NCBI GenBank assembly: GCA_020446465.1
Contig: JAGREQ010000001.1
Coordinates: 1 to 34,974 of the forward strand
Length of the DNA: 34,974 bases
Source of the DNA: Novosphingobium sp.
Lineage (GTDB): Bacteria; Pseudomonadota; Alphaproteobacteria; Sphingomonadales; Sphingomonadaceae
Direction: 5' to 3'
Shown here piece after piece: positions 5,395 through 18,602 of this stretch. Made by a program: the position numbers and the translations under genes. The notes below the pieces were generated by a model that was given only the letters and a program-made list of their open reading frames with translations, searched no databases and was not told the origin of the DNA. Each line of letters starts with the position of its first letter. Positions within the stretch are counted from its first letter, which is position 1.

Positions 5395-7718
5395 TCACAT
5401 CTTGAGGCCGACGGTCACACCATAAGTTGCAGGCATTCCGGCGTAGCGGACAATCGTATCGAACGCGGGGTAAGCTGTGTTCCAGTAGTATTTGTCGAAC
5501 ACGTTCTTGCCCCAGACTTCGACGCGCCAATGGTCGCTATCAATGCCTGCCCGCAGATTGACGAGACTATAGGAATCGATGCCATAGAGCGGGAAGTCCT
5601 GTGGCGTCGCAGAGGGCGGGTTTTCTGCGCCGCCGACGACTGAAATCGTCTTTGATCGGTATGTCACCGTTCCTCCGAAAAACGCATCAACAGAATCGCC
5701 CACCGGGAATTGGTATTGGCCATCAAAGCTCAGATTCCATTTTGGCGAGTATGGCATTGCCGTACCTGCAAAATCGCCTGAAAGCCCGGATGCATTTTCA
5801 CCTACGAACTTGTCGATTTCGCCTTTGGTATATGTTGCCGAAGCCATGAGTGTAAGGCCATCGACAGGTGCCGCAGTCACTTCAAGTTCGGCCCCCTTCA
5901 CAGTCGATTTCGGAATATTCTGAACGGAATCCAGCCAGCCCCAAACGGGATCATTTGTCCGCGCCCTTAGCTGCTTGTTTTTGTAGTCATAATAAAAGGC
6001 GGCGCCGTTTATCTGGAGTCTGCGATCAAGCAGCGAAAGTTTTGCACCCACTTCGTAATCAACGACCGACTCTTCCTTCAGCTTGAGGAACTGGCTCCAG
6101 ACCGAGGCACCGATGGCAGGGAAGCCGCCGCTCTTGTAACCCTTTGCCACGTTGGCATAAACAAGAATGCCATCCTGTGGCTTCCAGTCGAGGCCGAACT
6201 TCCAGGAAACATTATTTTCCTTTTCTGAATCGATAAACCTGCCAGGCGTAAATGGCGGAACACCATTTAGTGCCTCACCAAGATCATTGATCGGATAACA
6301 ATCACCCGGCGTATAGTTCCCCGCGCCGTAAAAAAATTCCCGACATTATACGGTTCATTGATGTCAGCACCGCAGTTGTTGGTCGACATCTTGGCGTGGG
6401 TGTAACGTACGCCAGCCTTCGCCGTCAGCTCTGGCACAAAATCATATTCGAGGCTGGCAAAGGCAGCCAGGGATTTGGTTTTTTGATCGACATAGAAGAT
6501 GTTATCGCCCTGAATGCCGAACGCGTTTGCAGTTGAGGCGACATTCCACTGGTACCCGCTGAACTGATGTATCTTGTCATTCTGATAATTGCCGCCAACC
6601 ATCCAGCGGAAACGGTTCGTCCCGCCATTTGCCAAGCGCAATTCCTGGAAGAAGCTTTTGATGCTTCCTTTTTCCGGATTATAGAGTTCTTCTTCCAGCG
6701 CGGTACCATCCCAGTCGATCCGTTCCCACTGCTTGAGTTTGGAATAGGAACTGAGCGATGTCAGAGTAACATCATCGAACAGTTCAAAGTCCCCGCGGAG
6801 CGAAAACTGGTAGAAATGATTGTCGCGCTTGGGCAGGCCGGGAACCCAGTCTGCAGCGGTATTTTCGGCCGGCGCAAGCGGCGAGCCAAGAACATCGGGA
6901 TCGCCAAAGCCCGGAATCTGGACGTTGAAGCCAATCAACTGTGCAGCCTGTGGTTCGCCCTTGTCTTTCCAGCCATTGATATTCAGCTGAAGTTTGACCC
7001 TGTCGCTCGGTTCATAATCGACCAGTAAACGTCCTTCGTAGATGCGCTTCTTGCCATTGCGCGAATCCGGGCCATCCGGACGGGTTTGGCTCTTCTGCCA
7101 TCCAGACGCGTGCTGCACCCGCTGTGAAAGACGGAACGACAGGACGTCCGACAACGGTGCCGAAATATAGGCTTCTTCTGAAACCGCGTTGTAATTGCCA
7201 ATGGTAACCGACGCGCCCATGTCGAGCGTATCGGTAGGAGAAGCAGGCACATAGTTGATCGCGCCGCCGGTCGAGTTCTGGCCAAAGAGAATACCCTGCG
7301 GGCCTTTCAGCACTTCCACGCGCTGCAGGTCAAATATCCCGTGCGCAGCCATGATCGGGTAAGGCAGCGGAACCTGATTCATATAGAGGCTTACGGCAGG
7401 TGTCGCTGAGAGAGTCGTGTCGAAAAAACCGACACCGCGAAGCGTAATGATTGGCGATGACGTAGGCGTATCTGCATAGGACATGGACGGTATGGATGCC
7501 GTCAGATCCTGAATGCTGGTTATCTGACGCTCTTTCAGGGCTTCGCCAGACAGGACTGCCACAGTCAGGCCCACTTTGTTCAAGGATTCCTGCCGCTTCT
7601 GTGCAGTGACGATGATTTCCTGAATGCCGGTGCTTTCCTGTGCGACCGCTGGCGCGGCCAGCAAACCAAGCGCCGAGGCGCTGCTCAGGGATATGGCGAG
7701 AATTGTCTTGTTTTTCAT
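5395..7718 (-). pseudogene. TonB-dependent outer-membrane receptor, interrupted by a frameshift
   Basis: Read through one shift, this is a full receptor of about 774 residues. The first 483 codons (7718-6267) hold a signal peptide ending APAVAQ, the plug with EIIVTAQKR and VEVLKGPQG, and the first barrel strands. The frame then leaves the family sequence and stops at 6267. The matching frame takes over at a run of seven T on the minus strand (6336-6330): one extra T gives NFFYGAGNYTPGDCYPIND, which aligns with GDCYTLND in the intact receptor at 19264, and the frame continues to 5395 (ends TYGVTVGLKM). GGAGGG lies 4 bases before the ATG. A single-base loss, a sequencing error or expression by slippage are all possible. 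It follows hyuB1 by 72 bases and probably imports the cluster's substrate or a related compound. Confidence 0.85.
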
Positions 7719-7766: not shown

Positions 7767-7791
7767 ACCCGACTTTCCTCCGAAGTCGGGT
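7767..7791 (-). terminator. 9-bp stem hairpin between hyuB1 and the TonB receptor
   Basis: ACCCGACTT (7767-7775) and AAGTCGGGT (7783-7791) are exact reverse complements around a 7-base loop. The stem touches the hyuB1 stop codon. No T run follows on the minus strand, so it is unlikely to be a full intrinsic terminator. It may stabilise the upstream message or reduce read-through into the receptor gene. Confidence 0.45.
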
Positions 7792-9998
7792 CACGCGTTG
7801 AGGATCAGGTTTTCAGGATAAGGATCGAACGTCCCCAGCCTTGGTGCAGCGGCTGGCGGACTGCTATCGAGTCCGATGTCAACCGAGAGAGACGATGCGC
7901 AAGCCGGGCAGTAATATTCGCGCATCACGACCGGTTCGCCATCCTTGCGACGGCGAACCTGCGAATGAAGGTCTGCAAAGCGGACGCTGACTTCCGTTTC
8001 CCGACTGACTGCATGATTTCGCCAATTCTCAGGCGAAGGACCAAGATCATGCCCGCATCCCGTGCACTGCCAATGCCCGTTTTCGATCCTGACAGGCGAG
8101 AACAGGGGCGCGTCCTTGTCGACAACAGCATTGGGCATCGCGTTGATCCGGGCTGTGCGAATTTCGTCGCGTTTTGCCGACGTGGCTGCTGCATCCACCT
8201 CGTCTTTTGCGCCAAGGACCACGCCGTAAATGTTGCGCGCCACCTCTTTGGAAACCAGGCCACCTGAAACATCGCGCGCAACCAACCCGGCATCGCGTCG
8301 CAAGGGGTCGCCCAATCCACCGCCGCCGCCGTGAATTACATGGTAGATATCGCCTCTGACGACTGCAAAATCGGTTACGGTGGCGGTCGTTTCTGGCACC
8401 TCACCGACGATTGTATCGGTATCGGCAAAGACATGACGATCCATCAGATCGAGCAAATTCGTATTGCGCCAGTGTTTCCATGCTCCGGCTGCTCCGGGAA
8501 AACCGCCCACGGCTCCACGCGGCGGAACAAGAGCTGTGTTGGTATATGCCCCGCCGTTCATGCTGTCACAGTGAAGAATGGCCATGGCCGTATCCACACC
8601 CAGACCACCGCGCGTTACGCCCGCACCGCCGGTATCTTGCGCGACCCGCCGCCACAGGATCATTCCGGGCTGGCTGACTTCTTCCAGCTCGACATCCGGC
8701 ATATCACAGCCCGACATACATTGGGCGGCATAGACTTCCATGCCATCGCTGTTCGTCTGCGCCGGGCCGCCCGTGGACATCCCGACCGACATCGGGAAGG
8801 CCAGGGCCGGCTGGCCGTTGCGACGATCCATCCCGAATGCCGTAAAATAAGTCTGGTCCTGGGCGGACTGGCTCGCCACACGCGATGCAATAAGCCGGTC
8901 CTTGCTCAAGCTGCAGGCCTGCGAGAAGACATCCGTCAGCAGTTTGTTCACGCGCATCCCTGTCTGGATGTGCGACATGGTGACAGGGGCAGGCGCCACC
9001 GAGTTGACGAGCGTGCCAGTCGGGCCAAGATCGAATGTAATCGGTCGCCAGATCCCCGCGTTGACGGGAATGTCATAGGCAAGCTGTGCCAAAATCGTGG
9101 TCCAGCTTTGGCCGACAACGGCAGGCCAGGCCCCATTGATAAAGCAATTGACCTGAGGTCCGCCGCGAAATTGCAAGGTCATTTCGTCGCCCTGCACCAG
9201 CAGCCGCACGCGGATTTCGTGCAGACCTTCAACACCGCGGCCATCATATTCGACCCAGTCGGAACTGTCGTATGTTCCGTCAGGCATCCGGGCGATAACA
9301 TCGCGCATCGCTTTTTCTGACAGGTTCTTGCCCTGTTCGTTAAGCTGCCTGAAGCGGTCGATACCAATTTCGTCGATCAGTGCAGCAATGCGACGTCCAC
9401 CGACATTGTTCGCCGCAATCATGCTACGGATGTCGTTGATGACAGTGCCTGCCATGCGGACATTGTTGCTGATGAACCGCTGCCACTGGGCATCAAGGCG
9501 TCCTTCACGGATCACGCGAACAGCCGGGAAAGCGAGCGCTTCGGAGTAATTGTCGAACGCTCCCGCCGCAAAGCCAGAGACGGCAGAACCGCCAACATCG
9601 AGAAGGTGCGCGTTCACATAGCCCCATCCGACAATTTCATCCTGTGCGAAGAATGGCATCACAATGCCCACGTCGCCCTGATGGATTGCACCGGAACTGT
9701 GCGGGTCATTGCAGATGAAGCCATCGCCGGGACGAATATCCTCGATGGCGGTATTGCGAAGCACGGCCTGCACGCCCGCTACCGCCGTGGAGACGTGAAA
9801 AGTCACATGCCCTGCAAAGCTCAGTTGCTCGACCTTGTCATCGAGAATGGAGGTGCTGAAATCCTTGGCGTCAGTAACCACCGGCGAACCGGATGTCCGC
9901 ATCAGTGTCACAGCCATTTCGCTGGCAATGTTTCGGACTGATTTCTGGTGAACCTCAACATCAATGATGTCGAAATCATCTGCTGTCATAACGTCCAT
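7791..9998 (-). CDS. HyuB-type (hydantoinase B/oxoprolinase/acetone carboxylase alpha) subunit fused to a gamma-like zinc domain
   Basis: 735 residues, longer than the HyuB family's usual 520-700. Residues up to about 600 are HyuB: CNDPHSSGAIHQGDV, the NAHLLDVGGS segment, SNNVRMAG and the glycine-rich HGGGGGLGDPL near the end of the domain. The last 115 residues hold two CxxC pairs, CTGC at 645-648 and CPAC at 697-700, with GHDLGPSPENWRNHA between. This resembles the separate small zinc-binding gamma subunit of acetone and acetophenone carboxylases. With the HyuA protein it should carry out an ATP-driven reaction: carboxylation of a ketone is favoured by the zinc domain, cyclic amide opening is the alternative. 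GGGAG lies 8-9 bases before the ATG. hyuA1 ends 15 bases upstream. Confidence 0.88.
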   Translation of the reverse strand: MDVMTADDFDIIDVEVHQKSVRNIASEMAVTLMRTSGSPVVTDAKDFSTSILDDKVEQLSFAGHVTFHVSTAVAGVQAVLRNTAIEDIRPGDGFICNDPHSSGAIHQGDVGIVMPFFAQDEIVGWGYVNAHLLDVGGSAVSGFAAGAFDNYSEALAFPAVRVIREGRLDAQWQRFISNNVRMAGTVINDIRSMIAANNVGGRRIAALIDEIGIDRFRQLNEQGKNLSEKAMRDVIARMPDGTYDSSDWVEYDGRGVEGLHEIRVRLLVQGDEMTLQFRGGPQVNCFINGAWPAVVGQSWTTILAQLAYDIPVNAGIWRPITFDLGPTGTLVNSVAPAPVTMSHIQTGMRVNKLLTDVFSQACSLSKDRLIASRVASQSAQDQTYFTAFGMDRRNGQPALAFPMSVGMSTGGPAQTNSDGMEVYAAQCMSGCDMPDVELEEVSQPGMILWRRVAQDTGGAGVTRGGLGVDTAMAILHCDSMNGGAYTNTALVPPRGAVGGFPGAAGAWKHWRNTNLLDLMDRHVFADTDTIVGEVPETTATVTDFAVVRGDIYHVIHGGGGGLGDPLRRDAGLVARDVSGGLVSKEVARNIYGVVLGAKDEVDAAATSAKRDEIRTARINAMPNAVVDKDAPLFSPVRIENGHWQCTGCGHDLGPSPENWRNHAVSRETEVSVRFADLHSQVRRRKDGEPVVMREYYCPACASSLSVDIGLDSSPPAAAPRLGTFDPYPENLILNA

Positions 9999-10013
9999 AG
10001 CGGAAACTCCCGT

Positions 10014-12119
10014 CTATCCGTTGAGTGTCAGGCTGAAGTTGAAGAAGCGATCTCGAGCGCAGACGGCTCCGCTGGGCACGTAAAGCGTCGTGTCCCCGAC
10101 ATCGACGATACATGGGCCATCAAGCCGGATACCTGGCGGCAGATCTTTTTCAGCATAAACCGGAACCTCTGCTTCCTCGCGAAGGAAGGGCTGGAATATC
10201 CGCCGGATGGAAACAGGCGCCGGCGCAGGGGCATCGGTAAGCGGCTCCTGTTCCCGGCTGACCGGCTTTTCACGGCGGAAAATCGCCTTGATCGCTATAT
10301 TCACCAGCACCACGGGCGAACCGTCCCAAGCAGTGCCCTCACCGTAATTCGCTTCGTAAACGGCAGGGAAAGAGGCAGCCATCTCGGCCGCATCCTTCGC
10401 CGTAAGCGTGCCTTCGGGGATTTGCTGGCTGACTTCATGCACTTGCCCAAGGAAGCGGAAGTCCCCTCGGCGTTCTATCTCCAGCGCACCGGCGTCGATA
10501 TTTTCGCTTTCGGCATCCGCCCGTGCCTGCGCCAACATTTCATCCAGTGCAGCATTCACTTGTTCAGCCTGCGACGGGTCATCCAGGGCCCAGTTCACCG
10601 TGCGATTATACTGGCGCACATAGTCTGCGGTCAGAACACCATAAGCTGAAAAGGCAGAACAGTTGTCCGGGACAATGATGTTCGGGCATCCGAGCCGCCG
10701 GCATATCTCCACGGCAAACAGCCCAAGCCCGCCTCCATAGGAAAAGAACGTGAAATCGCGTGGGTGGTATCCGCGCTCGACACTGACCATGCGCAATGCG
10801 TTGGCCATTTCGATCACGGCGAGGTCATAAATTGCAGCCGCTGCCCGTTCGGTTGACCAGCCAAGGGCGGTGCCAACGCCGGCATCGACGGCCTCTCTTG
10901 CTGCCGCAACATCCAGTTTATGGGCACCTTTGAGATAGTTGTCGGGGTCGATCAGCCCAAGAATGACATTCGCATCCGTAACGGTCGGACGCGTCCCGCC
11001 ACGCCCATAGCAGGCGGGGCCGGGTTCCGAGCCGGCGCTATGCGGCCCCACTTGTGGAACGCCACGTCCATCAAGCCAGGCGATGCTGCCACCACCGGCG
11101 CCAACAGAAACGATATCAAGGATGTTGATCCCGGTGCGGTAGACGCCAAAGGCTGCTTCCCGCGCGACTGTAGGCGTCAGGTCAGCCAGGACTGCCGTAT
11201 CAAAGCTGGTTCCACCCATGTCGCCGACAAGGACATTGCGTATCCCCAGTTTCTCGGCAATCTGGCGGGCACCCATGACACCGCCTGCCGGGCCTGACTG
11301 CATGAGAGTGATGGGCTTTTCTTCGACCGCATCAATCCCGATTGACCCGCCGATCCCCTGGAAAAATGTCATCGTGCCAGCAAAGCCCGATCGCCCCAGT
11401 TCGGATTTGAGCCCTTCGATATACCGTGTCGTCGCCCGGTGGGAGAGGCAGTTGAACACGGCAGTCATGAAACGTGGAAATTCCCCGATAACGGGGTGCG
11501 TCGCGTGCGATAGCGTGACAAATGCTTCGGAAAACTCTTCTTTCAGGATGGCTTCCGCTTGCAGTTCGTTGACCGGATTCTGAAACGACCAGAGGAAACA
11601 GACAGCAACCGCTTCAACGCCATTGGCCTTGAGCAAGCGGATGCCGTTGCGCAATTCCTCAACATCAGGGGCAACGATAACGCTGCCGCTGCTATCAACC
11701 CGCTCTGAAACTTCGACGATGCAATCGCGTTCGACAACTTCGGGCGGCGGAACCTGAAGCTGGTCGTCATATTCCCTGGTTCGCGCGCCACCGGCAAGCC
11801 GGAACGTATCTTTGAATCCCCGCGTGATAAGAACGCCGGTTTTCGCGCCCCGCAATTCGGTAATGGCATTGGTTACAATGGTCGAACCGTTGACAAACGC
11901 GCGGCAGCTGGACAGCACCTCTTCGGTCGATTTGCCGATCTGTTCAGCGGCCAGACCGATCGCGCGCAAAATGCCTTCGCTGTAATTACCGTGTGTGGTG
12001 AAGGCTTTGCTGCGGATGAGTTCATCCGGCGTAGACATGATAAGGTCGGTATGCGTGCCGCCGACGTCCACGCCGATCGCATAATCGCCTTCCTGCGTCT
12101 GTCCTTTAGCCTGCAACAT
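10014..12119 (-). CDS. HyuA-type (hydantoinase A/oxoprolinase/acetone carboxylase beta) ATP-dependent subunit
   Basis: 701 residues, full length for HyuA. The N-terminal ASKHA phosphate loop is DVGGTHTD at 18-25, with His in place of the common Phe. The second phosphate motif is GDMGGTSFD, and the family blocks SVGAGGGSIAW and PGPACYGRGG...PTVTDANV follow in order. Such subunits phosphorylate the substrate carbonyl or amide oxygen so that the partner HyuB can complete hydrolysis or carboxylation. GGAGA about 10 bases before the ATG supports the start. It lies 54 bases after the LLM oxidoreductase and 15 bases before hyuB1, so the three are probably one operon. Whether the product is a hydantoinase, lactamase or carboxylase cannot be read from this protein alone. 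Confidence 0.92.
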   Translation of the reverse strand: MLQAKGQTQEGDYAIGVDVGGTHTDLIMSTPDELIRSKAFTTHGNYSEGILRAIGLAAEQIGKSTEEVLSSCRAFVNGSTIVTNAITELRGAKTGVLITRGFKDTFRLAGGARTREYDDQLQVPPPEVVERDCIVEVSERVDSSGSVIVAPDVEELRNGIRLLKANGVEAVAVCFLWSFQNPVNELQAEAILKEEFSEAFVTLSHATHPVIGEFPRFMTAVFNCLSHRATTRYIEGLKSELGRSGFAGTMTFFQGIGGSIGIDAVEEKPITLMQSGPAGGVMGARQIAEKLGIRNVLVGDMGGTSFDTAVLADLTPTVAREAAFGVYRTGINILDIVSVGAGGGSIAWLDGRGVPQVGPHSAGSEPGPACYGRGGTRPTVTDANVILGLIDPDNYLKGAHKLDVAAAREAVDAGVGTALGWSTERAAAAIYDLAVIEMANALRMVSVERGYHPRDFTFFSYGGGLGLFAVEICRRLGCPNIIVPDNCSAFSAYGVLTADYVRQYNRTVNWALDDPSQAEQVNAALDEMLAQARADAESENIDAGALEIERRGDFRFLGQVHEVSQQIPEGTLTAKDAAEMAASFPAVYEANYGEGTAWDGSPVVLVNIAIKAIFRREKPVSREQEPLTDAPAPAPVSIRRIFQPFLREEAEVPVYAEKDLPPGIRLDGPCIVDVGDTTLYVPSGAVCARDRFFNFSLTLNG

Positions 12120-12173: not shown

Positions 12174-13235
12174 TCACCGCAAGGCCGGGAGCACATCCAT
12201 GCCGAAGCGACGGATTGCTTCACGCGTTTCGTCCGGTGTGGGGTAGGCCGGACCATGGCCCATGTCGGGCGTGCGCAACCGTATATTCAGCCAGTCAGGT
12301 GCAAATCGGCGTTCGATTTCGCGGATACGCTCAATCCAGCTCTCTGGTGTTCCAAAGTGCCACTGGCGAGTCTCGAAATCCCGAATTGCGCGTTCGGCTT
12401 CATCTTCCCTTGTGGTGTCTCCATCCGGGGCGATTTCACCGTCGAAATCGTGCTCTTCATAAAAGCTCGCCTCCCGCAACCAACGCGGGGCATGACGCGC
12501 GCGCGTGGCAGCAGGGTCATCTCCAATCCAGCCATCCTGATTCAGGACGGTATCCCATTTTTCACGACCTGCGGCGGCAGCGCGCTGGCGCGTTTGTGCT
12601 ATCCAGCTTTCGCTTTCATCCCAGCTCGGCTGTGTCCAGAGCACCCAGCCATCGGCATCAATTGCGCGATCCAGCGGTTTGCCCTTGCTGTGGGTGCCAA
12701 TCCAGATGGGGACGGAAGGGCGCTGGTATGTTCTGGGCGTCAGTTGAACATCGCTGAATTGATAGAAATCGCCATCGAAAGAGAAGCGTTGCCCCGAAAA
12801 AGCGAGCCGCAGCACGGCCAGCACCTCTTCAAAACGCTTGCCGCGCTTTTCCCAGGGAACACCGAAAAACCGGTGATAGTCTTCGTGATAACCAACACCG
12901 ACACCCAACGTAAAACGCCCATTCGACAGGTTGTCGATCATGGCGACTTGTTCAGCCAGATGCATCGGGTTGTAGAGTGTGGGCAAAAGGACAGTGGTGG
13001 CAATGCGAACGCGCGATGTCCGGGCGGCGATCGCAGCGGCTGCGATCAAAGGTGAAGGAACGAATGTCTCTCCGCGCGCGTGGCGTTCGGGCAGGAACAC
13101 GCCATCAAACCCCATTTGCTCGGCAAGTACCGCCTCTTCCACGACCTGTTCAAAGGCCGCGGTAGCCTGCGGCGGACTCGGCGCTTCCTGATCGTAAACC
13201 CCAAAATGGGTGTCTGCCATATAGGCGAATTGCAT
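12174..13235 (-). CDS. LLM class (luciferase-like) flavin-dependent oxidoreductase
   Basis: 353 residues with the bacterial luciferase-like TIM-barrel pattern. The N-terminus (MQFAYMADTHFG) is the first barrel strand. AEQMGFDGVFLPERH, the ATTVLLPTLYNPMHLAEQVAMIDNLS helix and GRFTLGVGVGYHEDYHRFFGV are the FMN and F420 family landmarks. These enzymes use reduced FMN (or F420) from a separate reductase to oxygenate the substrate; no reductase gene is in the window. AGAGGA lies 6 bases before the ATG. It is the first gene of the operon with hyuA1 and hyuB1, downstream of a palindromic operator at 13335-13375. Role in the pathway is inferred as hydroxylation or a desaturating/cleaving step. Confidence 0.9.
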   Translation of the reverse strand: MQFAYMADTHFGVYDQEAPSPPQATAAFEQVVEEAVLAEQMGFDGVFLPERHARGETFVPSPLIAAAAIAARTSRVRIATTVLLPTLYNPMHLAEQVAMIDNLSNGRFTLGVGVGYHEDYHRFFGVPWEKRGKRFEEVLAVLRLAFSGQRFSFDGDFYQFSDVQLTPRTYQRPSVPIWIGTHSKGKPLDRAIDADGWVLWTQPSWDESESWIAQTRQRAAAAGREKWDTVLNQDGWIGDDPAATRARHAPRWLREASFYEEHDFDGEIAPDGDTTREDEAERAIRDFETRQWHFGTPESWIERIREIERRFAPDWLNIRLRTPDMGHGPAYPTPDETREAIRRFGMDVLPALR

Positions 13236-13413: not shown

Positions 13414-14430
13414 TCAACGCCGGTTGATGCCGCCCGGATTGATCCAGCGCATTGCATCAGGAGCGCGAACCTCATGTTCGACGCTTTGCTGTCGGATGCT
13501 CATGGCAATCTGTGAAATTTCTGCATCGAGGCGACGGAACGCTTCGACCAGAAAATCAACGAACACGCGAACCTTGGGCAAAATAAGGTCATTTCGCCGA
13601 AACACCGCAAAGATCCCGTGGTCAAATGCGCTGTGAGTCATTTCGACATCAGGCAGAACGCGGACGATCCGGCCTTCTGCCAAATCGCTTGCAACAAGCC
13701 ATGCAGGAATCAAACCCAGACCAACCCCGGACCGGATTGCCTCACACAGCAGCCGTATTTCGCTGACTTTCAAATTGCCGGAAACAGGGATTTCTTTCTT
13801 ACCCGCGGCTGTTCGGCAAAAAACAACAGGGTCTCCATATCCGTTCTGTTGCACGGATATGAAATTGTGGGTCGCAAGATCCTCTACCGAAGAGATTGAT
13901 GAGTGCTCCGCAAAGTATGAACGACTGCCACACAGCACGCTTTCTACCCCGTGGGACAGGCGGCGAATGACAAGGTCAGGGTCATTCGGCATTCCGACCC
14001 TGAGATCGACATGAATTGTGGTATCACCCGGATCGGGCAAATGGTCACTCAATTCCACGTCGAGTTCTATTTCGGGATATTGCTTCAGAAAGGCCGGAAT
14101 AACCTCACCCAGAAAGCGTTCGCAAATTGCAGGGCTGGTGTGAAACTTCAGTGTTCCCCGAGGAATGGTCTGCTGTTCGGAAATTGCCGTATTGAGGTGA
14201 TCAATCTGGCTTATGATCTGCGAGACTTTGTCGAAATAGTGTTCACCAATTGTCGTCAAACCAAGGTTGCGACTGTTTCTGTCCAGCAGTTTGGCGCCGA
14301 CTGAATCTTCAAGCCGCGCCATCTTGCGCGAAACAGAGGCTGGCGACTGCCCGGTTATCCGGGCTGCGGCAGAAAAGCTGCCTGCCTCGATTACCGAGAC
14401 GAAAAGCCGCATCGCCTCCAGGGATTCCAT
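13414..14430 (-). CDS. LysR-family transcriptional regulator
   Basis: 338 residues. Residues 1-60 are the winged helix-turn-helix (MESLEAMRLFVSVIEAGSFS, then AARITGQSPASVSRKMARLE). The rest is the periplasmic-binding-type effector domain, with RGTLKFHTSP starting it and GVGLGLIPAW near its end. It belongs to the large CrgA-like group by pattern. The start is fixed by overlap: the hyuB2 stop TAA and this ATG share one base (TAATG at 14432-14428), so translation is coupled and the regulator is made together with the second HyuAB pair. It lies directly upstream of the operator at 13335-13375 and probably controls the LLM operon, perhaps also its own. A GC hairpin (13404-13422) overlaps its stop codon but lacks a T run. 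Confidence 0.93.
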   Translation of the reverse strand: MESLEAMRLFVSVIEAGSFSAAARITGQSPASVSRKMARLEDSVGAKLLDRNSRNLGLTTIGEHYFDKVSQIISQIDHLNTAISEQQTIPRGTLKFHTSPAICERFLGEVIPAFLKQYPEIELDVELSDHLPDPGDTTIHVDLRVGMPNDPDLVIRRLSHGVESVLCGSRSYFAEHSSISSVEDLATHNFISVQQNGYGDPVVFCRTAAGKKEIPVSGNLKVSEIRLLCEAIRSGVGLGLIPAWLVASDLAEGRIVRVLPDVEMTHSAFDHGIFAVFRRNDLILPKVRVFVDFLVEAFRRLDAEISQIAMSIRQQSVEHEVRAPDAMRWINPGGINRR

Positions 14431-16481
14431 TACCTTTTCCCCTGCTGCTCGCTGCGAAGCTTATGCCGCAGCGTGTCGGTTGCTTCATGGTCGATCACCA
14501 GCTTTTCGGGATGGCGTTGGGGGTCGCCTCTTATCACGACGCCATAATCGTCTGCGGCGCCTTCGATGCTGACGTATTCATCGCGGACATCGTGCAAGAC
14601 CATGGCCGGATCACGATCCAGCGGATTGCCCCAGCCGCCTCCGCCACCTGTCTGAAAGCGCAGCCCGCTGCCTGTTTCCAGATGCCATGCAGGATGCGAA
14701 CCGAAGTAGAAAAATTCCCCATTAAGGTCGGCCCGCTTGCTCACCGGATTGAATATGCCGGCAACAGGTTCGCAATGGTCATGGAATGCCGCGTCGTCTA
14801 TCAGCAGGCAGGAAGCATTCTCTTTCAAACTACGCTTCCCTGCCGGGTGCATCCAGCAGGCTTGTGCTGTCCCGCTCTGTCCCCCGAAAACGCCAACGCC
14901 TGCAGGCGATCTGGTGTGAAGTGCGGTCGTATTGTGATCGCCATCCTGCAGCCACAACGTATCCCGTTTGACCGCCGCCCCTCCACGGTAGCACCCTGGA
15001 CCTCCACTATCGGTTACATATTCCTTTCGCAAAACGACCGCTGGAACATCCGTTTCAATTGCCTCGGTCGAAGGGTCGAGATTGTTGGCAGTGTGGTTGA
15101 CGTTGTAACTGTCGCCATCTCCGGCCTTTGTGGCGCTCCACGGCCCGTGTTCGCCCCCGCAGTTCGATACTGATAGCCAGGGCGACCCGTCAGGCCATGT
15201 TCCGCTGCCGTTATGAACCATCATCGAGCCGAAATCAGGGCCGACGGCATCTTCGCCCAGTGCACCTGCAAGAGCTTTGTAAATGGCCGATATGATGACG
15301 AATGATGCCTCCCAATACATGAAAATGGGGCCATGTGGCGGGGTCGCGCTGACAAATGTGCCGGGCGGCAGGACGATGTTGATATTGCGAAAGCAGCCCG
15401 AGGTTATGGGTGCTTCCTGCTCGACAAGCATTTTCATGGCAACGCCCACGGCGGCCTTCACGTCCAGCGGGCCACAATTGATGCTGGTCGGCGCCTGTCG
15501 GGAGGTTTCACTGAAATCGAATTCCATGCGATCGCCAGCTTTGACTATCCTGACTTTCAGGCGGCACTCCCGTTCTGCCGAAGCCCCGTCGCAATCAAGA
15601 GCATCCTCGCCCTCATAAATGCCATCGGGTATTCGCTCGGCAATGGCGGTGCGCATCGCATCGGCAGAGACATCGCAAGAATAATTGATCGCCCCAAGGA
15701 AGGCATCTTCTTCATATTTGTCTATCGTCTCGATGAGCAGCCGCTCCCCCAGCAACAGACTTTGGTAAAGCGACTTGATATCCGGAAGGATAAGATCGCC
15801 GAAGCGGGCATTGTCAAAGATCAGGTTAAATGTGGGGCGTTGCGGCTTGTCATCCCGATAAAGCAATATGGGCGGAATAACGAGGCCGGTTTCATAGACA
15901 TTGTGCTTTGTCCCGCTGAAGCCGCCAGCCACCGTCCCGCCCATATCCAACTGGTGCGCCCTTACTGTCACGAAGGCCATCAGCTTGCTGCGATAGAACA
16001 CCGGCCTGACGAAGCAGACATCATTCACATGCAGTCCGATGCGGTATGGGTCGTTTGCAATCAGCACATCGCCGGGGCGAATGTTGTCGACGCCGAATTC
16101 TTCCACGATGTTACGAACCCCGTCACCCATCGTAAAAGTGAAGATGGAGAGGCTGTCCGAACTGGTGCACATGGGATAATTCAGGTGCGGCGGGCCGGAA
16201 ATGGTCGCTGCGAAATCGTACCACTCGCGCAAAATCATGGAGAATGACGTTGTGAGCAGGACCGTGCTCATGTGCTTGACGATATAACGCATACGGTTTG
16301 CCATGATCGTCGCGGCAAAACGATCCGTCGCATAACGGGCGGCAAAGGCAGCTTCATCGAGATACCGCAAACAGGTCATGCCGTTTTGCAGACGATCATC
16401 CCGCACAAGGGCGCTTTGCCGCCTGAGGGCTTCCTTACCGTCTTTTCCACGCGACTGCCATTTCGCTGTCCTGTCTCCCAT
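14430..16481 (-). CDS. HyuB-type subunit, second copy (hydantoinase B/oxoprolinase family)
   Basis: 683 residues. The HyuB landmarks are IANDPYRIGLHVNDVCF, VRAHQLDMGGTVAGGF, then GPPLD-like SINCGPLDVKA and the C-terminal FQTGGGGGWGNPLDRDP. It is strongly diverged from the copy at 7791-9998 and has no C-terminal zinc domain; it ends about 60 residues after the glycine run. The N-terminus carries about 50 extra residues before the first helix, so a start further in (for example the ATG of MTCLRYLDE) is possible. Only a weak AGG lies before the ATG at 16481. hyuA2 ends 21 bases upstream and lysR overlaps its stop. It should work with hyuA2 as an ATP-dependent amidohydrolase or carboxylase. Confidence 0.9.
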   Translation of the reverse strand: MGDRTAKWQSRGKDGKEALRRQSALVRDDRLQNGMTCLRYLDEAAFAARYATDRFAATIMANRMRYIVKHMSTVLLTTSFSMILREWYDFAATISGPPHLNYPMCTSSDSLSIFTFTMGDGVRNIVEEFGVDNIRPGDVLIANDPYRIGLHVNDVCFVRPVFYRSKLMAFVTVRAHQLDMGGTVAGGFSGTKHNVYETGLVIPPILLYRDDKPQRPTFNLIFDNARFGDLILPDIKSLYQSLLLGERLLIETIDKYEEDAFLGAINYSCDVSADAMRTAIAERIPDGIYEGEDALDCDGASAERECRLKVRIVKAGDRMEFDFSETSRQAPTSINCGPLDVKAAVGVAMKMLVEQEAPITSGCFRNINIVLPPGTFVSATPPHGPIFMYWEASFVIISAIYKALAGALGEDAVGPDFGSMMVHNGSGTWPDGSPWLSVSNCGGEHGPWSATKAGDGDSYNVNHTANNLDPSTEAIETDVPAVVLRKEYVTDSGGPGCYRGGAAVKRDTLWLQDGDHNTTALHTRSPAGVGVFGGQSGTAQACWMHPAGKRSLKENASCLLIDDAAFHDHCEPVAGIFNPVSKRADLNGEFFYFGSHPAWHLETGSGLRFQTGGGGGWGNPLDRDPAMVLHDVRDEYVSIEGAADDYGVVIRGDPQRHPEKLVIDHEATDTLRHKLRSEQQGKR

Positions 16482-16502
16482 ACTTGAACCTGTTTCGCTC
16501 TG

Positions 16503-18551
16503 TTATCGCCACTTCGCGCCCGCGTTGCTGATATGCAGTTCACCATAGTTTCCCACAATCAGGAGTTGATCCTGCAGGAGCAAGGTCGTCGACCCTTCTT
16601 CCCTGACAATGGCGGCGCCCCTGATCTCGTCACCGCAACGCAAGTCCGGCCGCCAATACTCGCCCGCCAAAACGGTTTCTTCAGCCAGATAATCGAGTTC
16701 CACGATACGACGCGCAGGCGGAGTCTTGCCCCGACGCTCCTCAAGACGAGGATATTCAACTTTTTCGGTCGGGACGATCGTTTCGATCCGATATGTTACG
16801 CTTTGCACCGGGATCGACGGAAAGCGGTTTCCTGATCGAAGCTCATAAGTCGTGTGAAAATTGGCAATCATCTGTTCCACGACGCTGCCCGTTATCGGCC
16901 CCGGAGGAATCGGAATAAAGGGCGTTTCCCAACTCTGACCAAGAAGCCTGCCATCAAAGGCCCGAACAAAAACCGGCTCTGGAAGTATATGGTGCAAACG
17001 AACGCACATCGCTTCTTCCATTTCGCGAAATACACGATCAATTTCATCGGCAACGTCAGGGGTCAGCACCCGATAAACGCTGCGGCTATCGCTGAAAGTC
17101 TGATCGGAACTGACCAGACCCAGAGCCGAAAAATGCCCCGGATGCGGCGGCACAATAACTTCTGCAGCCTGGAGCCGTTCAAGCACCGCCGGCAACAGCA
17201 TCGGTCCTGCTGCGCCAAATGCCATGATACTGAAATCACGCGGATCGATACCGTGATGAATGGCCACATTCGTCAGGCCTTCAGCGATATTGCTCAACCC
17301 GACATGAAAAGCATGGCGAACCCTGTCGCCAAACGCCAAATTGCAATCCAGACCGAGAAATGCCTTTCTGGATAGTTCAGGCTGCAACGAAAAACGTCCG
17401 CCAGCAAAGCTGTCAGGGTCGAGAATACCCATCAACACGCAGGCGTCTGTCAACGTTGGCAGCTCTCCGCCCTTGGCATAGCAGGCAGGGCCAGGGTCGG
17501 CCCCGGCACTGCCTGGCCCCACTTGTAATTCGCCCGCCGAACTCACCCAGGCGAGGCTTCCACCTCCGGCTCCGATCGATGAAACCTCGATCGAAAGCGC
17601 GTTGACGACGAGATCATGCTCAAGTTCGAACGTGGTATTCACATAGGGTCTGAAATCACTTACCAGGCTGATATCGCATGATGTGCCGCCAATATCAGCG
17701 CAGAGCAAATTGCCTTTGGCTATCATCTTTCCAAAGTGCATACTGGCGATTGCGCCGGCAGCAGGACCAGCGAATACCATTTGATGAGGGCGCTCCATGG
17801 CCACATCAGCAGGCAGAAGCTGCGCTGCACAATTAGCAAAGTTCAGCGTCCCACCGAACTGCATCGCCTCTAACCCCGAATGAAGGTTCTGACTGTAATC
17901 TTTATAAATTAGCCGCATGAGGACATCGATCACGGTCGTCGATGCTCTGTCATACTCTTTCGCCAGTGGAGAGACATCGCTTGAAATCACACACGGTATT
18001 TCGGGCAGCTGCTCCCTTACGAGTTCCCTCAGCCTTATTTCATGGCGCGGGTCGACGTAGGCGTTGAGCAGGCAGATGGCGACGCCTCCAACTTCGCATT
18101 CCCGAAGCACGGCGATCTGTTCACCAGCCTGGTCTTCATCCAGATCAATCAAGATCTGCCCGTCCGCAGTGATGCGCTCCATAATACCCCGACGCAAATA
18201 CCGTGGCACCAAAGGGGCTTGCGTATCGCCAAAGCGTCGGCGCCAATGCGGGTTTGTCTGATCTGTGGCAGGCCGCCATGTCCGGCCTGCATCGAGGATA
18301 TCGCGGTGTCCAAAAGTCGTCAGGAACGCTATTTTGGGAAGGTCGCGGGTAATAACCGCATTCAGTCCGCGCGTGCTCGCATGGTTGAAAAGCGTCGCGT
18401 TTTCGCCTCCGACTTCCAGAACGCCAGCGAGAACGGCCTGGGCGGTATCGCGATTTTCCGTTGCGAGCTTGATGGTTCTAATGCCGGCATCATCAATAGC
18501 GACCACGTCTGTAAATGTGCCGCCCACATCGACGCCGACAAGTTTTGCCAT
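16503..18551 (-). CDS. HyuA-type subunit, second copy (hydantoinase A/oxoprolinase family)
   Basis: 682 residues. The first phosphate motif is DVGGTFTDV at 8-16, the second is CADIGGTSCDIS, followed by SSIGAGGGSLAW and PGPACYAKGGELPTLTDA. All are standard for HyuA. The ATG at 18551 is chosen because GGAGGTGA, an almost perfect anti-16S match, precedes it by a few bases; the ATG at 18575 has no such site. It is the catalytic ATP-binding partner of hyuB2, 21 bases downstream. A small unknown gene lies 51 bases upstream. Compared with hyuA1 it differs throughout, so the two pairs are old paralogues or separate acquisitions, not a recent duplication. Confidence 0.93.
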   Translation of the reverse strand: MAKLVGVDVGGTFTDVVAIDDAGIRTIKLATENRDTAQAVLAGVLEVGGENATLFNHASTRGLNAVITRDLPKIAFLTTFGHRDILDAGRTWRPATDQTNPHWRRRFGDTQAPLVPRYLRRGIMERITADGQILIDLDEDQAGEQIAVLRECEVGGVAICLLNAYVDPRHEIRLRELVREQLPEIPCVISSDVSPLAKEYDRASTTVIDVLMRLIYKDYSQNLHSGLEAMQFGGTLNFANCAAQLLPADVAMERPHQMVFAGPAAGAIASMHFGKMIAKGNLLCADIGGTSCDISLVSDFRPYVNTTFELEHDLVVNALSIEVSSIGAGGGSLAWVSSAGELQVGPGSAGADPGPACYAKGGELPTLTDACVLMGILDPDSFAGGRFSLQPELSRKAFLGLDCNLAFGDRVRHAFHVGLSNIAEGLTNVAIHHGIDPRDFSIMAFGAAGPMLLPAVLERLQAAEVIVPPHPGHFSALGLVSSDQTFSDSRSVYRVLTPDVADEIDRVFREMEEAMCVRLHHILPEPVFVRAFDGRLLGQSWETPFIPIPPGPITGSVVEQMIANFHTTYELRSGNRFPSIPVQSVTYRIETIVPTEKVEYPRLEERRGKTPPARRIVELDYLAEETVLAGEYWRPDLRCGDEIRGAAIVREEGSTTLLLQDQLLIVGNYGELHISNAGAKWR

Positions 18552-18602
18552 GTCACCTCCATTTTTCCCAGACATGGTAACGAAGCAATCGCAACCGTGT
18601 GC

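What the first reader, a model, noticed from the sequence alone, without database searches (positions are those of the whole stretch)
7791..12119. HyuB fused to a gamma-like zinc domain, next to HyuA
The C-terminal extension with CTGC and CPAC pairs resembles the small gamma subunit of acetone/acetophenone carboxylases, normally a separate protein. A fusion would make this a two-gene carboxylase rather than a hydantoinase, giving a ketone two competing fates in one cluster: carboxylation or Baeyer-Villiger oxidation.
Basis: partly seen in the sequence, partly recalled or inferred. Interest (0 to 1): 0.65.

Follow-up and report, generated by a model that had tools for sequence, protein, structure and literature searches.

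The report
Two-gene carboxylase-like enzyme with fused gamma
This bacterial gene pair encodes an ATP-using enzyme whose second protein carries, fused to its end, a small zinc-binding piece that is a separate protein in the known acetone- and acetophenone-fixing enzymes; the fusion is real but widespread, and which substrate the enzyme acts on is unknown.

Summary
HyuB1 (7791-9998, minus, 735 aa) is a complete Hydantoinase_B protein whose residues 636-708 match Pfam Acetone_carb_G above its cut-off (36 bits, cut-off 21). Profile-profile comparison, the four cysteines, and a confident AlphaFold model whose tail matches solved acetone/acetophenone carboxylase gamma chains all agree. HyuA1 (10014-12119) is an intact ATP subunit.

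The fusion is not a curiosity of this genome. In 151 sampled HyuB proteins it recurs in Actinobacteria, Proteobacteria, Chloroflexi and Firmicutes; others carry a ~95-residue gamma gene directly after hyuB, or a fused gamma with lost cysteines. In HyuB and HyuA trees all gamma-bearing enzymes (Acx and Apc included) fall on one side of one strongly supported branch; gamma-less ones, with caprolactamase and N-methylhydantoinase, fall on the other. Gamma-bearing loci, but not gamma-less ones, sit near acyl-CoA ligases.

The Baeyer-Villiger 'competing fates' idea is weakened: in two related genomes only hyuA2-hyuB2-lysR-luciferase-like-hyuA1-hyuB1gamma is conserved (plus the TonB receptor in one), not the monooxygenases.

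The parts
7791..9998 (-). hyuB1-gamma: HyuB (metal/coupling subunit) with C-terminal gamma domain fused, 735 aa
   Evidence: PF02538 358.8 bits, PF08882 36.3 bits; AF2 pLDDT 94.4, pTM 0.94; PDB folds 5m45, 5l9w, 6yra, 9h03
7851..8114 (-). fused gamma (Acetone_carb_G) zinc-ribbon-like domain, residues about 629-716; Cys 645, 648, 697, 700
9606..9863 (-). predicted active-site metal tetrad of HyuB1: D46, H106, D109, H131 (equivalents of CapB D41/H99/D102/H124)
   Evidence: conserved in all classes; mutational data for CapB in PMC8453981
10014..12119 (-). hyuA1: ASKHA-type ATP subunit, 701 aa
   Evidence: PF05378, PF01968, PF19278; ATP motifs D18VGGTHTD, D300MGGT, G363SEPGP and interface motif ERVDSSG at 139
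12174..13235 (-). luciferase-like flavin monooxygenase, 54 bp upstream of hyuA1, same strand
   Evidence: PF00296 210 bits; F420/FMN LLM-class match below cut-off; conserved in order in two relatives
13414..14430 (-). LysR regulator
   Evidence: PF00126, PF03466; conserved in two relatives
14430..16481 (-). hyuB2: gamma-less HyuB of the hydrolase side (true start probably about codon 38)
   Evidence: PF02538 403.6 bits, no PF08882; gamma-less side of tree; residue F at the class-marker column; homologs align from residue 38
16503..18575 (-). hyuA2: partner of hyuB2, ATP motifs intact
5395..7718 (-). TonB-dependent receptor downstream of hyuB1, split into two ORFs here; one frame (778 aa) in a congener

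Best explanation
HyuA1 and HyuB1-gamma form one ATP-dependent complex with the parts list of a ketone carboxylase (HyuA + HyuB + gamma), the gamma being a C-terminal domain of HyuB. Inferred mechanism: HyuA1 uses ATP to phosphorylate the enol form of a carbonyl substrate and/or bicarbonate. The activated species pass through a tunnel to the D46/H106/D109/H131 metal site of HyuB1, where a new carboxyl group is added. The Cys4 gamma domain is a zinc-held clamp on HyuB, structural and not catalytic, kept in register by the fusion. With one HyuA per HyuB it would have to work sequentially like acetone carboxylase (ATP to AMP) and not with two kinases like acetophenone carboxylase. Shown: architecture, motifs, fold, gamma homology, family position. 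Inferred: carboxylation and the order of steps. Unknown: the substrate.
For: Gamma identity and fold. All gamma-bearing enzymes, including Acx and Apc, lie on one side of a single branch, 100/100 in the careful HyuB tree and in all bootstraps, with one change in the HyuA tree. Class-marker residues place HyuB1 with the gamma-bearing/carboxylase side: residue 37 is G (A in Acx/Apc) against F/Y/R in the gamma-less, and residue 450 is R against mostly Y/H. The HyuB core superposes slightly better on Acx/Apc chains (TM 0.76) than on CapB/NMHase (0.70-0.71). An AMP-forming CoA ligase lies within 7.5 kb of 9/35 gamma-bearing loci against 0/38 gamma-less after 60% redundancy removal (p 0.0007). In the window's clade 8/12 loci have CoA-activation or crotonase/thiolase genes nearby against 6/45 gamma-less (p 0.0006). 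The published family analysis finds gamma only in Acx and Apc and absent from all hydantoinases (PMC5214803).
Against: No member of the fused group found here is biochemically characterised. The window's clade is the gamma lineage nearest the hydrolases in both trees, and NCBIfam scores HyuA1/HyuB1 closer to caprolactamase than to Apc, far below every cut-off. No CoA ligase or thiolase lies in the conserved unit itself, and a gamma-less hydrolase-type pair sits in the same run. Three clade members (L043, L044, L158) have an amidohydrolase nearby. Some relatives have lost the gamma cysteines. The neighbour test compares samples of different taxonomic make-up.
Confidence: 0.5

Rival explanations
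1. It is an ATP-dependent cyclic-amide hydrolase (lactam, hydantoin, imide or other ureide) that has kept or gained a gamma domain for stability. HyuA1 phosphorylates the amide carbonyl and the metal site in HyuB1 opens the ring. The neighbouring gamma-less HyuA2/B2 and the luciferase-like monooxygenase would act on the same N-heterocycle.
For: Best named models and PDB sequence hits are CapA/CapB and N-methylhydantoinase. The clade is adjacent to the hydrolase branch. A hydrolase-type pair and a luciferase-like enzyme are in the conserved unit. Amidohydrolase_3 genes lie near L043, L044 and L158; in G486 an asparagine-synthase-like and a carbamoyltransferase-like gene lie upstream.
Against: Gamma is absent from every hydrolase-side sequence sampled here and from published Hyd enzymes (PMC5214803). 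The class-marker residues are not of the hydrolase type. CoA-activation and crotonase genes are common in the clade. The G486 upstream genes are not conserved in G491 or the window.
Confidence: 0.38
2. It catalyses another ATP-driven step of the same mechanistic family, neither ketone carboxylation nor amide hydrolysis, for example carboxylation at another enolisable position or hydrolysis of a lactone or CoA-bound ring carbonyl; gamma is a structural clamp only.
For: Gamma cysteines are lost repeatedly while HyuA/HyuB remain, so gamma is not tied to one chemistry. 2-oxoindoleacetyl-CoA lactamase shows that the family accepts CoA-bound substrates (PMC5214803).
Against: No positive evidence for a particular third reaction.
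Confidence: 0.1
3. The fusion is an assembly or frameshift artefact, or a chance zinc-ribbon resemblance.
For: The window is from a fragmented, 68% complete genome assembly in 549 contigs.
Against: Same full-length fusion at 79% identity in a one-contig congener and dozens of other fusions; specific profile and fold matches.
Confidence: 0.01

Closest known systems
Acetone carboxylase AcxABC (Xanthobacter autotrophicus; PDB 5M45, 5SVB, 5SVC)
   Same: HyuA-, HyuB- and gamma-type parts; gamma encoded after HyuB; one HyuA type; Cys4-type gamma; HyuB core TM 0.76
   Different: Gamma is a separate 168-residue protein; Glu in place of Asp as fourth metal ligand (D46 here); HyuB only about 20% identical; distant in both trees
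Acetophenone carboxylase ApcABCDE (Aromatoleum aromaticum; PDB 5L9W)
   Same: HyuA + HyuB + Cys4 gamma; Asp-His-Asp-His metal tetrad; HyuB core TM 0.76
   Different: Gamma is separate and encoded before the main HyuA; has a second ATP subunit alpha-prime (and epsilon); the window pair has one HyuA per HyuB
Caprolactamase CapAB (Pseudomonas jessenii; PDB 6YRA) and N-methylhydantoinase (PDB 9H03/7HK5)
   Same: Best sequence scores for HyuA1/HyuB1; two-gene A+B layout in CapAB; same ATP motifs and metal tetrad; CapAB also needs bicarbonate
   Different: No gamma domain; they lie across the strongly supported branch; different residues at the class-marker columns 37, 107 and 450
Uncharacterised HyuA/HyuB-gamma pairs in Patulibacter medicamentivorans, Conexibacter, Porticoccaceae, Rhodococcus plasmids and others
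   Same: Same two-gene architecture with fused gamma; nearest named relative 51% identical over the HyuB core
   Different: Different gene neighbourhoods (CoA ligase, CaiB-type CoA transferase, crotonase); none known to me as characterised; at least two carry only a generic 'hydantoinase B/oxoprolinase family protein' name

Membership tests
[quoted passage not shown]
   PF02538 358.8 bits; D46/H106/D109/H131 aligned with CapB ligands
Hydantoinase/ketone carboxylase superfamily (HyuA+HyuB) | HyuA with ASKHA ATP motifs DxGGTxTD, DxGGT, GxxPGP | tested here: met
Ketone carboxylase (Acx/Apc type) | gamma component with four zinc-ligand cysteines | tested here: met
   PF08882 above cut-off and Cys4 present, as a fused domain
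Ketone carboxylase (Acx/Apc type) | gamma encoded as its own gene (acxC/apcB) | tested here: not met
   gamma is the C-terminus of HyuB1; only one PF08882 match in the available, 68% complete genome
Ketone carboxylase (Acx/Apc type) | placement in the Acx or Apc clade | tested here: not met
   same side of the gamma branch but a separate clade nearer the gamma-less side
Ketone carboxylase (Acx/Apc type) | ATP- and bicarbonate-dependent C-C carboxylation of a ketone | not testable with these tools
   needs enzyme assay
Acetophenone carboxylase | second ATP subunit alpha-prime in the operon | tested here: not met
   HyuA2 pairs with its own HyuB2 and falls with gamma-less HyuAs, not with Apc alpha-prime
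Hydantoinase/lactamase (Hyd) branch | HyuA+HyuB only, no gamma | tested here: not met
   gamma present; HyuB1 across a 100/100 branch from all gamma-less sequences
Caprolactamase CapAB | NCBIfam equivalog cut-offs (1000 bits) | tested here: not met
   483 and 241 bits

The most novel reading that the evidence does not exclude
A broad, undescribed class of ATP-dependent carboxylases with only two proteins (HyuA and HyuB-gamma), spread over several phyla and mostly named as hydantoinases. It would carboxylate carbonyl compounds other than acetone and acetophenone, feed the product to CoA ligation or transfer and crotonase chemistry, and bridge the known ketone carboxylases and the lactam hydrolases.
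Probability: 0.4. Interest if true: 0.65.

Novelty: new variant of a known kind. Interest (0 to 1): 0.42.

Why it matters
The published family analysis states that gamma is absent from all hydantoinases and separate in the carboxylases (PMC5214803). Many two-gene 'hydantoinase' operons with gamma fused, or a small gamma gene beside them, are not covered by that scheme and are probably misnamed. If they carboxylate, a large set of CO2-fixing catabolic enzymes has been hidden under hydrolase names; if they hydrolyse, gamma cannot serve as a carboxylase marker. Either result tests what separates carboxylation from hydrolysis in this superfamily.

Tried and rejected
Artefact or chance zinc ribbon: rejected. 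HyuA2 as an Apc-type alpha-prime partner: not supported, it groups with gamma-less HyuAs. Baeyer-Villiger monooxygenases as part of the unit: not conserved in G491/G486. Three apparent gamma exceptions on the hydrolase side (L116, L132, L136) have unrelated tails. Crotonases near relatives were checked for a ring-cleaving 2-ketocyclohexanecarboxyl-CoA hydrolase model; only generic enoyl-CoA hydratase-type models came up. Literature searches found no paper describing the fusion; the library is open-access only. CoA transferase alone was not enriched near gamma loci (p 0.77).

Full report
OBSERVATION. The finding's coordinates are correct. HyuB1 is 7791-9998 on the minus strand (735 aa) and HyuA1 10014-12119 (701 aa), 15 bp apart and in the order A then B. 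Pfam finds Hydantoinase_B at residues 10-565 (358.8 bits) and Acetone_carb_G at 636-708 (36.3 bits; curated cut-off 21); the tail alone scores 40.6 bits. phmmer against the PDB puts the acetone carboxylase gamma chain 5m45_C first (E 6e-4), with 5svb_C and the Apc chain 5l9w_C next.

HOMOLOGY OF THE TAIL. A profile of tails from the window's clade aligned to stand-alone Apc-type gammas at probability 97, E 6.7e-11, and to Acx gammas at 94, E 8.6e-8. An AlphaFold2 model of HyuB1 from a 97-row alignment has pLDDT 94.4 and pTM 0.94 with the tail confidently placed. Foldseek against the PDB returns the HyuB-type chains (9h03, 5m45_A, 5l9w_A, 6yra_B) and then the gamma chains 5m45_C, 5svc_C, 5svb_C, 5svb_F (prob 1.00, E about 1e-4) and 5l9w_C (prob 1.00, E 0.011), ahead of any unrelated fold. 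The extension is therefore a gamma domain and not an unrelated zinc ribbon.

HOW UNUSUAL IS THE FUSION. In 398 genomes of the order, 17 have PF08882; six are in long fused frames (the window's included) and the rest stand alone. A scan of about 85,000 species genomes with a profile of fusions returned 80 loci. With relatives and controls, 151 HyuB sequences were classified: 55 with fused, Cys4-intact gamma by an automatic motif; about 18 with a fused gamma-position tail lacking the full Cys4 pattern (some only by strict spacing, others with cysteines clearly replaced, e.g. L046, L047, L068; four, L071/L072/L078/L090, have no zinc pattern and only a weak profile link, probability 73); about ten with a roughly 95-residue gamma gene directly after hyuB; 15 of Acx or Apc type; the rest without gamma. 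Two plasmid-borne homologs are annotated only as 'hydantoinase B/oxoprolinase family protein'.

FAMILY POSITION. In a FastTree of 151 HyuB cores and a careful IQ-TREE of 51, all gamma-less HyuBs, with caprolactamase CapB and N-methylhydantoinase, form one side of a single branch (100/100, all bootstraps) and all gamma-bearing ones the other. The HyuA tree, built from a different protein, gives the same split with one change. The trees are unrooted, so one gain and one loss of gamma cannot be told apart. HyuB1 is nearest to Patulibacter medicamentivorans (51% over the core), and its clade is the gamma lineage closest to the gamma-less side. HyuB2/HyuA2 (14430-18575) fall on the gamma-less side with long branches.

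RESIDUES. The metal tetrad D46/H106/D109/H131 and the ATP motifs are intact; the equivalent CapB residues are essential (PMC8453981). Some HyuB columns separate the classes: residue 37 is G in nearly all fused/adjacent forms and A in Acx/Apc, but F/Y/R in gamma-less forms; residue 450 is R or K against mostly Y/H; residue 107 is mostly Q in fused forms. HyuB1 is of the gamma type at all three and HyuB2 has F at 37. Their functional meaning is inference.

NEIGHBOURHOODS. Within 7.5 kb, AMP-forming CoA ligases occur at 19/81 gamma-bearing loci and 0/45 gamma-less (p 0.0001), or 9/35 against 0/38 after redundancy removal (p 0.0007); Acx/Apc loci have 3/6. In the window's clade 8/12 have a CoA ligase, CaiB-type CoA transferase, crotonase or thiolase against 6/45 gamma-less (p 0.0006); examples are ligase-hyuA-hyuB-gamma in L039/L040 and hyuA-hyuB-gamma-CoA transferase-crotonase on a Rhodococcus plasmid (L119). 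This is what a carboxylated product needing CoA activation would look like, but a lactam-derived acid could also be activated, three clade members have an amidohydrolase nearby, several categories were tested, and the two samples differ in taxonomy.

THE WINDOW'S OWN UNIT. In a congener (G491, 79% HyuB1 identity, one-contig genome) and another genome of the family (G486, 94% over the part present) the run hyuA2-hyuB2-lysR-luciferase-like-hyuA1-hyuB1gamma is conserved in order; in G491 the TonB receptor follows (G486's contig ends inside hyuB1). None of the window's Baeyer-Villiger-type monooxygenases, PQQ alcohol dehydrogenase, esterase, aldehyde dehydrogenase or CoA ligase has a counterpart in the roughly 40 kb (G491) or 20 kb (G486) examined. 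The luciferase-like enzyme is not clearly of a Baeyer-Villiger subfamily.

MECHANISM AND VERDICT. Architecture and family position are established. That the pair carboxylates a carbonyl compound is the single most likely reading (about 0.5), with ATP-dependent amide hydrolysis close behind (0.38). The structural paper on Apc considers gamma non-catalytic, embraced by the C-terminal arm of the HyuB-type subunit, which makes a C-terminal fusion geometrically reasonable (PMC5214803). With one HyuA type, a carboxylase of this build should resemble Acx (sequential, ATP to AMP). Bicarbonate dependence is not a test, because CapAB requires bicarbonate for both lactam hydrolysis and ATPase activity (PMC8453981).

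NOVELTY. Two-gene HyuA/HyuB-gamma enzymes are a variant of a known kind. I found no paper describing them in the open-access library, but subscription journals are not covered, and the sequences themselves are common in databases.

Noticed in passing
window 5395-7718 (-): TonB-dependent receptor gene broken into two ORFs (483 aa with plug and 251 aa barrel end), while a congener has one 778-aa frame at the same place; frameshift or assembly error.
   Followed up: partly
L046, L047, L068, L071, L072, L078:9962-12103, L090: HyuB proteins with a tail at the gamma position that has lost some or all zinc cysteines; some are only weakly recognisable as gamma. The zinc site appears dispensable in several lineages.
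   Followed up: partly
L065, L086, L091, L092, L094, L096, L098, L100, L102, L109: Three-gene operons hyuA-hyuB-small gamma (about 87-105 aa) that are neither Acx nor Apc in the tree.
   Followed up: partly
window 14430-18575 (-): A second, gamma-less HyuA/HyuB pair on a very long branch, conserved with the first pair in two relatives; likely a hydrolase with unknown substrate.
   Followed up: partly
L169:12024-15164: In G486 an asparagine-synthase-like and a carbamoyltransferase-like gene lie upstream of hyuA2; not conserved in the other two genomes.
   Followed up: partly
L039 (CAMCVN010000006.1): A contig titled Bifidobacterium breve MAG carries a catabolic HyuA/HyuB-gamma cluster closely matching a Conexibacter MAG; the name is probably wrong.
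   Followed up: no
L119:5240-7478: A degradative HMG-CoA reductase and HMG-CoA lyase lie just upstream of hyuA-hyuB-gamma on a Rhodococcus pseudokoreensis plasmid, a possible substrate hint for that homolog.
   Followed up: no
window 14430-16481 (-): The start of hyuB2 is probably about 37 codons too early: both relatives align only from residue 38.
   Followed up: no
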